From: an uncultured Faecalibacterium sp.
GTDB taxonomy: Bacteria > Bacillota > Clostridia > Oscillospirales > Ruminococcaceae
Assembly (NCBI GenBank): GCA_934512105.1
Contig: CAKSWQ010000007.1
Location: 6,400 to 70,399, forward strand
Length of the DNA stretch: 64,000 nt
Direction of reading: 5' to 3'
A program made the translations under genes and the position numbers. How positions within the stretch are numbered: the stretch's first letter is position 1; each line of letters starts with the position of its first letter. Under the pieces are notes generated by a model, which did no database searches, had not been told where the DNA came from, and saw only the letters and a list, made by a program, of their open reading frames with translations. This document shows, piece after piece, positions 34,614-48,008 of this stretch.

Positions 34614-35690
34614 TCAGAGAATCTGATCGATGGATGTAGTTTCTTCTGCGTTCTCCTTTTCCAGAACGTACAGATGGCGCTTGACCAGGGGCTTAAAATT
34701 CTTTGCATAAGGCCTCAGAACGGCGTAGCGCTGTTCAATGGTGCTGCTGAACTGGCGGTTCTGATCCAAATCATAAGCAGCCTGGTAGGTCTTTAACGTC
34801 TTAACAAGATACTCCTGATCCTTGAAGTCCTCCGCATGGCACAGGGCGTCCATAGCAAGCGCCTTTCTGTAGACAAAGAAGCAGATCAGTGCTGAAGGCT
34901 GTTCCTGTGTTGTATTCCGCAACCCGATCTCAGCGATGTCAATAATAGCCTGGTAGTCACTGCTATCATCCAGTGTATTGAGGAGCGTCACGCAGCACTG
35001 GGCGGTAACGAGCCGGGATTTTGAATCTTTGGGATCAGGCGAAAAATCTTTAATGTACTTTGTCAGGATCAAAATTGCATCGCTGCGTTTATTCATCATT
35101 AGGAGAAGTTCAGCTTCCTGATTGTATCCATGCTCGTCAAATGGGTACAATTTTTGATACTCTTTTGAAAGATCAAGAGCACGCTGATACAACTGCACAT
35201 CCATCGGATAGGCGCTGAGCTTTTTTTTAAGAAAACTTACCGAGTAAAGAAAAAGGCGGAACGACCAAAGTTCTTTGGGAATCTCCAAAGCTCGACCGAG
35301 GTATTCTTCTCCTTTTTCAAAATGGCTGCTTTCAGCACAGGCGTTGATTGCATCTGCGAGCATATCGCGGTTATAGGGAGCAAAGGACAATGCATAATCA
35401 CATACCTGAAGGGCAAGAAGAAAATCACCGCAACGGGACAGATCCATAATAAAATTATGATATACATTGCACTCACTCCGCACCTGGTTTGCCGGATCGG
35501 TAACGTAACTGACCAGACACTTGCGGTACGCTGCGCTGTTCTCATCCATATGCATCTGAAGAAGGATATTGGCATCGTGGATCGATGAAACACAAATGTT
35601 CTCAGAATCTTGTGTTTTAGGAGTGTCGTGATTTTCCGCGTCTTGCAGTGCCTTTAAGAGTGCCAGTCTTTTCAGCGTATCTTCATTCAT
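34614..35690 (-). CDS. Unrecognised helical-repeat protein of the ubiquitin-like cluster
   Basis: 358 residues, start at 35690 with AAGGAGTAATGCACT upstream; that AAGGAG also ends the preceding gene. It is almost wholly alpha-helical with pairs of helices of TPR-like length (LALQVCDYALSFAPYNRDML, FEKGEEYLGRALEIPKELW, LYQRALDLSKEYQKLYPFDE). This suggests a protein-protein interaction scaffold. No catalytic motif or membrane segment is visible. It is the last gene of the unit that starts at 39934, after the kinase. It may present a substrate or partner to the kinase or the conjugation enzymes; that is inference. Confidence 0.7.
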   Translation of the reverse strand: MNEDTLKRLALLKALQDAENHDTPKTQDSENICVSSIHDANILLQMHMDENSAAYRKCLVSYVTDPANQVRSECNVYHNFIMDLSRCGDFLLALQVCDYALSFAPYNRDMLADAINACAESSHFEKGEEYLGRALEIPKELWSFRLFLYSVSFLKKKLSAYPMDVQLYQRALDLSKEYQKLYPFDEHGYNQEAELLLMMNKRSDAILILTKYIKDFSPDPKDSKSRLVTAQCCVTLLNTLDDSSDYQAIIDIAEIGLRNTTQEQPSALICFFVYRKALAMDALCHAEDFKDQEYLVKTLKTYQAAYDLDQNRQFSSTIEQRYAVLRPYAKNFKPLVKRHLYVLEKENAEETTSIDQIL

Positions 35691-35696
35691 AGTGCA

Positions 35697-36764
35697 TTAC
35701 TCCTTGTTTGTAATATTTGTGTTCGGAAGGTTATTATTCAGATAAGCGGAATCTGCATCAGAAAATTTTTGCGGCGAATTTCTGAGAAAATCATCCATCT
35801 GCGGCGTCCGGAGCTTTTGAATCTGTTTATTCTGGTCCATAAGATCAATCGCTTTCTTAAACACTTCCTGAAAAGATTTCAGAAGTGCTTTCAATTCCCG
35901 TTCTTCTTTTGCGGGAAGCTTCTGGAATAAAAGCCAAGAGGAATAGAAGTTTCCTTTTTCAGCAACATCTTTAACAAGATCCAGTGCCGTCTCCATTCCA
36001 CGAGGAAGCAGATAATCCTTGATGTAAAGATCACAGCATCGGGGACAATTGAGCCGTTCCGCAGAATCCACAAGTGGTTGAGCCGAATCAGTTGGTCGGC
36101 CCAGCATGACATACATACTCAGCCGCTTTTCGGCCTCATAAGGGGCGATGAAGCGGAGGAGCTGGACCTCAAAATAGTATCCAAATTCATTTTTGGGCTC
36201 CATCTTTTTCAGCGTTTCCGCATAGGGAAGCCCTTTTTCTGCATATTCTTTTTGTTGCTGTTCAGGGAAGATCTCAGCCAGAGACAGAAGCAGCCGGCAA
36301 ATCGCTTTGCCAAGGCGATAAATGGGGTACTGCTGAAATTCGAGATTAAACTCCTCAATCATCTTGGATGAAACAGCAATCTCTCCGTTAAGCTCAAGAA
36401 GAGCTTCAATCTGAGCTGCGAAAAAGCTTCCTTTCTTCGCACAGAAAGGCAGAGCATATGTACATAACTCAAGGGAAAGAAGGTTCTGTCCTTGATCCAG
36501 AAGAAGGTCAATGATCTCGAGAAACTGCTGATCGCTCCCCTTGAGCTTTTTATCGGTAATGGAGCGAACGATCCTTTCTGCCTGACGGGGGGTTTTACGG
36601 ATAGCAGCCGCTTCATCGGAAGAAAGGAATTGATGTGCTTTTTGTTGGTGGATAAAATCATCAAAAAACATTTGGTTTGACTTGAGACTATCGTTCAGAG
36701 ATGTTCGATCAAAGGAGAAATAAGACTGCTCTTCCGAGGATGAAAATTTGCTGATGTTGTCCAC
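35697..36764 (-). CDS. Unrecognised helical protein of the ubiquitin-like cluster
   Basis: 355 residues, with a GTG start at 36764 preceded by AAGGAGGGGAG. The sequence is helical throughout and looks like a distant relative of the next gene product (LLSLELCTYALPFCAKKGSF compared with LLALQVCDYALSFAPYNRDM), so the two may be paralogues. It carries a cysteine pair LNCPRCC near residue 240 that could bind metal. There is no signal peptide. It starts about 26 bases after the kinase stop and ends six bases before the next ATG, so the genes are co-transcribed. Confidence 0.68.
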   Translation of the reverse strand: MDNISKFSSSEEQSYFSFDRTSLNDSLKSNQMFFDDFIHQQKAHQFLSSDEAAAIRKTPRQAERIVRSITDKKLKGSDQQFLEIIDLLLDQGQNLLSLELCTYALPFCAKKGSFFAAQIEALLELNGEIAVSSKMIEEFNLEFQQYPIYRLGKAICRLLLSLAEIFPEQQQKEYAEKGLPYAETLKKMEPKNEFGYYFEVQLLRFIAPYEAEKRLSMYVMLGRPTDSAQPLVDSAERLNCPRCCDLYIKDYLLPRGMETALDLVKDVAEKGNFYSSWLLFQKLPAKEERELKALLKSFQEVFKKAIDLMDQNKQIQKLRTPQMDDFLRNSPQKFSDADSAYLNNNLPNTNITNKE

Positions 36765-46930: not shown

Positions 46931-46994
46931 AGGGGCTCCTTTCTTATAGTAAGGTAATAAAATGTTTTTGCCCGGCGAGTCATTCAGGGAAATC

Positions 46995-48008
46995 TTAGTG
47001 AGCGTGCTCAACCAGATAGTTCAGCAGTTTCTGGCTGCGGGGACTCAGACTGCCGCCCAATGCTTCAGACGCGCGGTCAAAGACGGCCTGATTCTCCGGC
47101 TTAATGCGGGAGGACAGGTTGACAGACAGCTCACCAATCATCCGGCGTGCCAGCTGGCGCTGCTCGGGGTTCAGCTTCTTGGCCGCGATGCGGGTGAAGT
47201 CCTGCAGATATACGCTCAGTGTTGCGTCCAGCGCATCCCAGTAGCGCAGGAAGGCTTCTTCCGAAAATGCGCCGTAAAAACAGGAGGAATATTCGATCTT
47301 CTTCTCGCCATCACTGTGATCCATGATCACACTGCCATAACGCAAAGGGAAGTTCTTATCCTGACAGAAGTAGTCGATCAGAGGGGTTCGACCGGGCAGA
47401 TTCTCAGCATTGATCCGGAACTCAATACGGAAATTACACAGCTTGTACTCGCACAGAATATGACCGTCCACATCAATGCCGTGAGCCGTTTTATCAAAAG
47501 AAAACACCTTGACGCCTTCACGGATGGTGTGAGGGATTGGATGCAGCCCCTTCTTCTGTGCGAGCCGCAGCATGGACTGAACCACAGCGTCGCAGTAAGC
47601 GGAGTTGCTCTTAAAGCTGCTGCGCAGGATCACGCCTTTGCCAACGGGAATATCCCCAAAAGAAGAATCGGCATCTTCTTCATCACAGTTTTCTTCGTCA
47701 TCATTGTCCTCTTCGCCATCCTCCTCATCTTCTGCATCGTCATCGTCAAAATCGCCGACATCGTCCTCCTCATCGGAATTATCTTCCTCGCCGCCCATAT
47801 CGGAGACGAGATCGCCCATGCTGGACATCAGCTCAATGAGGCGATTCAAAGCTGCGATCTTCTGGGCAGTCTCGGAATCCTTGTCATCAGGGCACTCGTT
47901 TTTTTCCGGGATCATGGAATCGGGGGTGAGCTCCGCATGAATGACCGGATCAGAGCAAGCAGCTTCGGTCGTCTGAGGATTCATCGTTTCATTTTTAGCA
48001 ATGCACAT
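46995..48008 (-). CDS. Acidic-tract protein of the ubiquitin-like cluster
   Basis: 337 residues, ATG at 48008 with AAGGAGAAAAG upstream. It has a helical N-terminus (AQKIAALNRLIELMSSMGDL), a run of about 45 nearly all Asp/Glu residues (about 73-118), and a C-terminal alpha/beta domain of about 215 residues. The domain contains YKLCNFRIEFRINAENLPGR and EEAFLRYWDALDATLSVYLQ, and resembles YbjN/type-III-chaperone-like folds in style, though I would not assign it. The acidic run could bind basic proteins or the basic tail of the JAMM enzyme. First gene of the cluster, partnered with the AAA+ ATPase. Confidence 0.72.
   Translation of the reverse strand: MCIAKNETMNPQTTEAACSDPVIHAELTPDSMIPEKNECPDDKDSETAQKIAALNRLIELMSSMGDLVSDMGGEEDNSDEEDDVGDFDDDDAEDEEDGEEDNDDEENCDEEDADSSFGDIPVGKGVILRSSFKSNSAYCDAVVQSMLRLAQKKGLHPIPHTIREGVKVFSFDKTAHGIDVDGHILCEYKLCNFRIEFRINAENLPGRTPLIDYFCQDKNFPLRYGSVIMDHSDGEKKIEYSSCFYGAFSEEAFLRYWDALDATLSVYLQDFTRIAAKKLNPEQRQLARRMIGELSVNLSSRIKPENQAVFDRASEALGGSLSPRSQKLLNYLVEHAH

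What the first reader, a model, noticed from the sequence alone, without database searches (positions are those of the whole stretch)
34614..48008. A near-complete bacterial ubiquitin-like conjugation pathway in one fifteen-gene cluster
Seen directly: a beta-grasp modifier (44385-44642), E1 with GAGASG loop and candidate C185 (43062-44303), canonical stand-alone E2 with HPN, C103 and PNSPAN (44682-45200), a RING-like membrane protein (42445-43032) and a JAMM isopeptidase with E53, H130, H132, D144 (41763-42419), all adjacent on one strand. Known: E1/E2/JAB sets exist in type II CBASS and in Bil/Bub operons, and Burroughs and co-workers described prokaryotic RING genes near such sets. Inference: this one is distinct. 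No cyclase (CD-NTase) or CBASS effector is present, E1 and E2 are not fused, and the set is extended by a kinase, PP2C, transglutaminase-like protein, Lon-like AAA+ and acidic-tract protein. It may be an anti-phage system or a regulated protein-tagging pathway.
Basis: partly seen in the sequence, partly recalled or inferred. Interest (0 to 1): 0.95.

Follow-up and report, generated by a model that had tools for sequence, protein, structure and literature searches.

The report
Gut-island ubiquitin-like tagging gene cluster
A 15-gene block between two DNA repeats, in what is likely a human-gut bacterium, encodes a predicted ubiquitin-shaped tag next to relatives of its activating enzyme, its conjugating enzyme and a tag-removing protease, and would likely let the cell attach and remove a protein tag much as our cells use ubiquitin, possibly for defence against phages or stress.

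Summary
Fifteen same-strand genes (34614-48008) include a predicted beta-grasp modifier, a ThiF-type E1, a stand-alone HPN/Cys E2 related by profile to Rad6/UBE2A, and a JAMM protease. Six genes (E2-Ubl-E1-JAMM-Zn ribbon-transglutaminase-like) recur in the same order at 45-64% identity in a Lachnospiraceae MAG, the one full second locus read. Of 24 modifier sequences (window included), 23 carry TKAG; 15 of those stop exactly at its glycine and 8, the window's among them, add 2-5 residues, as in ubiquitin precursors.

Corrections: the 'RING' protein keeps one four-cysteine zinc site and matches no RING family. Kinase, PP2C, TPR, AAA+ and acidic genes have no counterpart on the MAG contig, so their membership is unproven.

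It has kin: nine other genomes carry related operons (Ubl with TAG, E1 and E2 in 9 of 9; JAMM in 8; true RING pattern in 8; FHA tail in 7). I recall that class from Burroughs et al. 2011, which is not held. None of the nine has the window's transglutaminase-like or Zn-ribbon genes. This is a new variant of a known kind, without a proper RING. Conjugation, targets and defence are untested.

The parts
44385..44642 (-). Ubl modifier, 85 aa, ends ...LPTKAG-ASLAF; predicted to be trimmed to TKAG
43062..44303 (-). E1 (ThiF fold) with C-terminal zinc-ribbon domain; candidate thioester cysteine C185
44682..45209 (-). stand-alone E2, HPN + C106 (45209 start), NPNSPAN, conserved C-terminal KPYPCGRxDFPHPxGY
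41763..42428 (-). JAMM/JAB metalloprotease, likely processing and deconjugating enzyme
41518..41766 (-). 82-aa zinc-ribbon protein (PF13453 1.8e-4, just below cut-off), overlaps the JAMM gene by 4 bp, conserved in L001
40776..41498 (-). transglutaminase-fold enzyme with Cys-His-Asp conserved in L001 (C153, H183, D199)
42445..43032 (-). membrane protein with a one-site zinc finger (C48 C51 C65 C68, numbered from the 43065 start) before hydrophobic helices; not a full RING
40033..40809 (-). PP2C phosphatase (true start may lie inside)
38459..39964 (-). 501-aa protein, no confident family match
36791..38386 (-). Ser/Thr protein kinase with C-terminal extension
35697..36764 (-). 355-aa protein, no confident family
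34614..35690 (-). TPR-like protein, 358 aa (TPR_19 1.4e-3, below cut-off)
45246..45509 (-). DUF4160-like 87-aa protein
   Evidence: E 2.4e-4, below cut-off
45674..47011 (-). Lon-like AAA+ ATPase; no Lon protease domain in the Pfam list
46995..48008 (-). acidic-tract protein, 337 aa
33036..33434 (+). left copy of a 399-bp direct repeat (94% identical), carries an integrase 3' end
48929..49327 (+). right copy of the direct repeat
48657..50798 (-). serine recombinase ORF (its frame ends in the antisense of the integrase fragment)

Best explanation
The cluster encodes a predicted YukD-type ubiquitin-like modifier beside a ThiF-type E1, a stand-alone HPN/Cys E2 and a JAMM metalloprotease family member, and these would likely work as a reversible protein-tagging pathway. 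Predicted order of events: (1) the JAMM protease (or, less likely, the transglutaminase-fold enzyme) trims ASLAF to expose the TKAG glycine; (2) the E1 adenylates that glycine and loads it, likely on C185; (3) it passes to C106 of the E2; (4) the E2 transfers it to a lysine of an unknown target, likely near the membrane, with the one-zinc membrane protein as docking or E3-like partner; (5) JAMM removes it. Kinase and PP2C would switch the pathway or its targets; the Lon-like AAA+ ATPase would unfold or remodel tagged proteins. The whole lies between recombination-associated repeats, so a conflict role (phage or stress defence) is the likeliest use. Shown: genes, families, conserved catalytic residues, the recurring six-gene cassette, the glycine terminus. 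Inferred: every biochemical step and the function.
For: Same six genes in the same order, 45-64% identical, in L001. Ubl: predicted ubiquitin fold; TKAG in 23 of 24 sequences, exact stop at G in 15 of the 23 (14 of 22 if the overlong P0063 is left out), 2-5 extra residues in 8. Related operons: EITAG in 9 of 9, one ending at the G and eight with tails, one of these (L019) an extension with a zinc-ribbon-like and hydrophobic region. E2: HPN/Cys invariant in 27 aligned sequences and HPN...C in 30 of all 32 database relatives. E1: C185 invariant in 9 aligned. The JAMM's best PDB relative is the Caldiarchaeum Rpn11 homologue (E 4.8e-6), which cuts a nine-residue tail off pro-ubiquitin and deconjugates products (PMC5654768, passages read).
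Against: No biochemistry. A single terminal Gly (AG), not GG. Most TKAG relatives (15 of 23) need no trimming, so JAMM may act only in deconjugation. Two of 32 E2 relatives lack an intact HPN...C. No proven E3. Nine of the 15 genes have no convincing match on the L001/L006 contig (best AAA E 0.002, a short antisense stretch). The window's E2 and Ubl alone score just under their Pfam cut-offs. Only one full second locus could be read.
Confidence: 0.8

Rival explanations
1. The six-gene cassette is the system; kinase, PP2C, 501-aa, TPR, AAA+ and acidic genes are one or two unrelated neighbours brought together in the island.
For: None of them has a match at E <= 1e-3 in L001/L006 or in the nine related loci; a promoter-like site precedes the 501-aa gene; AAA and acidic genes are 164 bp away from the rest.
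Against: All one strand with tight spacing; the PP2C ORF, from its longest start, overlaps the transglutaminase-like gene; FHA tails in seven of nine related loci point to phospho-signalling in this class.
Confidence: 0.4
2. The Ubl is a sulphur carrier (ThiS/MoaD/Urm1 style), E1 making a thiocarboxylate, with no protein conjugation.
For: E1 is ThiF/MoeB-like by NCBIfam, all below cut-off; C-terminal AG rather than GG.
Against: An E2 with conserved catalytic residues and a JAMM are in the cassette in both loci; no thiamin or molybdopterin pathway gene other than the E1 itself in the Pfam lists of the 15.
Confidence: 0.07
3. It is a secretion (type VII) accessory: a YukD-like assembly factor, kinase and membrane protein, E1/E2 being regulatory.
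For: L001's Ubl passes the YukD cut-off; one related operon (L018) lies beside small genes that resemble LXG-locus genes (by eye).
Against: No FtsK/EssC or WXG protein in the Pfam lists of the 15 at E <= 1; conserved catalytic residues in E1, E2 and JAMM.
Confidence: 0.06

Closest known systems
RING-associated YukD-type Ubl conjugation operons (Prok-RING_1, PF14446; class recalled from Burroughs, Iyer & Aravind 2011, paper not held)
   Same: YukD-like Ubl with (K)AG, E1 of the same architecture (33-36% in seven aligned), HPN E2 with C-x-G-x2-W, JAB/JAMM
   Different: no proper RING, no trypsin, FHA or LysM match; adds Zn ribbon and transglutaminase-fold enzyme; E2 diverged (25-29% in five aligned)
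Caldiarchaeum subterraneum ubiquitin operon (PMC5654768, passages)
   Same: Ubl with tail, E1, E2 and Rpn11/JAMM in one place; tail cut by JAMM shown there
   Different: GG terminus, small RING protein, archaeal
Bil (BilABCD; PMC1779556 section 14 as type 6d, PMC11354881 passages)
   Same: separate Ubl, E1, E2, JAB genes
   Different: E2 lacks the usual His and has a downstream His; BilA has two Ubl domains
Type II CBASS / 6A-MBL
   Same: E1, E2 and JAB families
   Different: E1-E2 fused there, with a nucleotidyltransferase or MBL partner; not found here
FtsH ternary Ubl systems (PMC7159879, section 21 read)
   Same: separate JAB, E1 and E3-type genes with an AAA+ ATPase
   Different: Ubl joined to E2 and EAD1, with vWA and FtsH there; no vWA or FtsH in the Pfam lists here

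Membership tests
RING-associated YukD-type Ubl operons | YukD-like Ubl | tested here: met
   PF08817 1e-7 above cut-off in L001's Ubl; the window Ubl itself gives only DUF2604 1e-4; profile-profile E 8.6e-6, probability 83, to seven Ubls of the class
RING-associated YukD-type Ubl operons | E1 with shared C-terminal zinc-ribbon domain | tested here: met
   nine-E1 alignment, C318 C321 C340 C343 invariant
RING-associated YukD-type Ubl operons | HPN E2 and JAB/JAMM | tested here: met
RING-associated YukD-type Ubl operons | binuclear prokaryotic RING protein | tested here: not met
   no PF14446 match at E <= 1; four invariant Cys only; comparison with nine class RINGs scores 20.9, reached by 6 of 100 Cys-kept shuffles; best of 40 all-column shuffles 14.5
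Type II CBASS | CD-NTase gene | tested here: not met
   no nucleotidyltransferase in the Pfam lists of the 15 proteins at E <= 1
Type II CBASS | E1-E2 fusion (Cap2) | tested here: not met
   separate E1 and E2 ORFs
Bil | E2 without the usual His but with a downstream catalytic His | tested here: not met
   HPN in window and 30 of 32 relatives; definition from PMC1779556 section 14 and PMC11354881 passages
Bil | two-domain BilA | tested here: not met
   85-aa single domain
Poly-Ubl operon type 6e of Iyer 2006 | E2-like domain lacking the catalytic Cys | tested here: not met
   C106 invariant in 27 aligned
Bub | Bub component set | not tested
   only passages naming Bub were seen; the defining papers are not held
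Anti-phage defence system | protects against phage | not testable with these tools
   PADLOC scan of 10 of the 15 proteins gave only partial E1, JAMM, kinase and weak AAA matches

The most novel reading that the evidence does not exclude
A separate, undescribed lineage of bacterial ubiquitin-like conjugation: a Rad6-like stand-alone E2 and a YukD-type tag that have shed the RING E3 and instead work with a transglutaminase-fold enzyme and zinc-ribbon partner (a second protease or even a second tag-joining enzyme), gated by a dedicated kinase/PP2C pair and coupled to a Lon-like AAA+ ATPase, carried on a mobile gut island as an anti-phage system.
Probability: 0.25. Interest if true: 0.82.

Novelty: new variant of a known kind. 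Interest (0 to 1): 0.6.

Why it matters
If it conjugates, it would give a bacterial E1-E2 relay with an HPN, Rad6-like E2 and without a full RING. It would also make an open question directly testable: whether YukD-type modifiers, which I recall mainly from type VII secretion, are truly attached to proteins. The strict TKAG/TAG end with variable tails across two branches is a precise prediction for that test. The added transglutaminase-fold enzyme, with no match in any of the nine related loci, is a candidate new deconjugase or ligase.

Tried and rejected
Own genome: not held, so host and genome-wide copies are unknown; human-gut origin is inferred from faecal phage-labelled records matching the flank.

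Viral contigs: no relatives of E2, transglutaminase-like, 501-aa or AAA proteins; E1 gave two matches of 28 and 35% over the adenylation region, taken as generic ThiF and not opened. Plasmids and phages: none for E2. Plasmids: none for 501-aa or transglutaminase-like; nine distant AAA hits (25-31% identity), the one opened (Roseburia) with no Ubl, E1 or E2 gene in its annotation.

I first took the ~600-aa E2 frames for CBASS Cap2 fusions; reading the loci showed E2 followed by hydrophobic and FHA regions, so that was dropped. I first saw no JAMM in L026; tblastn finds one.

RING fold: AlphaFold2 model too poor (pLDDT 59), not searched. Descent of the zinc finger from a RING fits in register but is not above the cysteine-kept control.

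VIA second look: YukD structures were not seen among the 50 rows, which excludes nothing.

Papers: in the listings, and in the passages or sections opened, I saw none that describes this gene set. The library lacks most subscription papers, and Burroughs 2011, Gong 2025, Chambers 2024 and Ye et al. on Bub are not held, so no absence from print is claimed.
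Full report
What is there. Fifteen ORFs of 82-531 aa lie head to tail on the - strand from 48008 to 34614, with gaps of 164 bp at most and some short overlaps. Family scans place an AAA+ ATPase nearest to Lon, a DUF4160-like protein, an E2, a Ubl, an E1, a JAMM protease, a zinc ribbon, a transglutaminase-like enzyme, a PP2C phosphatase, a kinase and a TPR-like protein. 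Of these, E2, Ubl, DUF4160, zinc ribbon, transglutaminase and TPR matches lie below Pfam's cut-offs on the single window sequence. The 501-aa, 355-aa and acidic proteins have no confident family.

The core enzymes. The E2 alone scores 26.5 bits against UQ_con (cut-off 27), but 32 relatives were found. In the alignment of the window with 26 of them, H96, P97, N98 and C106 do not vary. I had left out six (P0001, nearly identical to the window, and the short or low-scoring P0006, P0028, P0029, P0031, P0032). Over all 32, HPN...C is in 30; P0029 has LPN with the cysteine and P0028 lacks the stretch. The family profile finds solved Rad6/UBE2A-type E2s from E 1.3e-7, aligned through the HPN, the cysteine and the SPAN motif (best 60 of 166 matches shown). 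The E1's best solved relatives are yeast Uba1 chains (8e-28, adenylation region). C185 and two cysteine pairs of a C-terminal zinc ribbon are invariant in nine E1s. The JAMM keeps E56, H133, H135, S144 and D147 in both loci, and its best solved relative is the Caldiarchaeum Rpn11 homologue. The transglutaminase-like protein keeps C153, H183 and D199 in both loci and matches one solved protein, 9crn, E 1.9e-14, through the Cys and His.

Conservation of the set. One scan of species genomes gave one true relative, L001, a Lachnospiraceae MAG (9 stretches matched patterns, 1 was confirmed). There E2, Ubl, E1, JAMM, zinc ribbon and transglutaminase-like genes follow in the same order at 54, 53, 64, 62, 54 and 45% identity. 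The other nine window proteins have no convincing match on the contig: in the first 13 kb the best is E 0.21, in the rest the best is an antisense 98-residue stretch of AAA at E 0.002. In draws of genomes, only G001, the genome of L001, carries this E2 type: 1 of 397 (family), 1 of 24 (genus), 1 of 391 (class), 1 of 398 (phylum), G001 itself being in each draw. Indirect linkage: an E2 relative (P0020) and a relative of the zinc-finger membrane protein (P0041, 40% identical) both report a longest contig of 11614 bases.

A wider class. The same searches found nine other genomes with weaker E2 matches: 2, 6, 1. I fetched all nine. By tblastn with parts of L017, L016 and the window: Ubl, E1 and E2 in 9 of 9; JAMM and RING in 8 of 9 (not in L023, a 4.7-kb contig); FHA-type tail in 7 of 9 (not L016, L023); trypsin-like in 6 of 9 (not L016, L021, L023). 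None has a match at E <= 1e-3 to the window's zinc-finger membrane, zinc-ribbon, transglutaminase-like, PP2C, kinase, AAA or other accessory proteins. EITAG stands near the Ubl's end in 8 of 9 and inside a longer ORF in L019, one ending exactly at the G. Pfam confirmed Prok-RING_1 in the three RING proteins, JAB in the three JAMM proteins and FHA in the one long E2 scanned, from L016 and L017. L016 carries the tightest set: Ubl, E1, stand-alone E2, JAMM-LysM, RING. Window E1 is 33-36% identical to seven class E1s in the alignment and 31% to that of L026 by BLAST. The Ubl profiles match at E 8.6e-6, probability 83. From memory, this is the class described by Burroughs, Iyer and Aravind in 2011, who suggested that YukD-like Ubls may be conjugated; the paper is not held.

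The 'RING'. Eight aligned sequences share only C48, C51, C65 and C68 as cysteines, one zinc site. No RING model matches. Against the nine class RINGs the cytosolic part scores 20.9; 40 shuffles of all columns reach at most 14.5, but 6 of 100 shuffles that keep the four cysteines reach it, the best 26.7. It could be a RING that lost one site, or an unrelated zinc finger. It stays a candidate E2 docking protein at the membrane, no more.

Setting. A 399-bp direct repeat (94%) flanks the whole cluster, 33036-33434 and 48929-49327, and carries the end of a tyrosine integrase. The right flank from 48756 with its serine recombinase is 90% identical to a phage-labelled, unverified record from human faeces, MT836827.1. 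The cluster is lower in GC (46-56%) than the DNA at 4-26 kb (57-62%), but the stretch at 26-34 kb is as low and the right flank overlaps it (48-59%), so GC alone does not mark the edges.

Mechanism and verdict. The parts and their conserved residues make an E1-E2-Ubl-JAMM relay the best explanation (0.8). Which protease trims the tail, what the target is, whether the transglutaminase-like enzyme cleaves or joins, and whether kinase/PP2C and AAA+ belong are open. It is not CBASS, Bil or poly-Ubl type 6e by tested features; it fails the RING test of its nearest class, so it is reported as a related variant, not a member.

Noticed in passing
window 33036-33434 and 48929-49327; 984-1022: 399-bp direct repeat with an integrase end; a 39-bp piece related to right-flank sequence at 49546-49584 also occurs at 984-1022.
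   Followed up: partly
window 48657-50798: Serine recombinase resembling CcrB/XisF (below NCBIfam cut-offs) whose reading frame ends in the antisense of the integrase fragment.
   Followed up: partly
L019 10757-11347: A YukD-like Ubl whose ORF runs on after TAG into a zinc-ribbon-like and hydrophobic region, a possible natural precursor that a JAB cut would free.
   Followed up: no
L018 17118-19796: Small genes that resemble type VII LXG-locus genes by eye beside a RING-class Ubl operon.
   Followed up: no
L001 8151-11786 and L006 2790-6092: Downstream of the cassette in the MAG: a lipoprotein-like gene, a 525-aa and an 1100-aa protein without Pfam match (the last looks actin/Hsp70-like by eye).
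   Followed up: partly
window 25819-28698: Short peptide gene with a leader-like start (by eye) beside an ABC-FtsX exporter, and a subtilase at 28932-31673; could be a secreted-peptide locus.
   Followed up: no
E2 C-terminus, window 44685-44750: KPYPCGRxDFPHPxGY-type tail in most E2 relatives (29 of 32 by a loose pattern), a likely partner-binding motif.
   Followed up: partly
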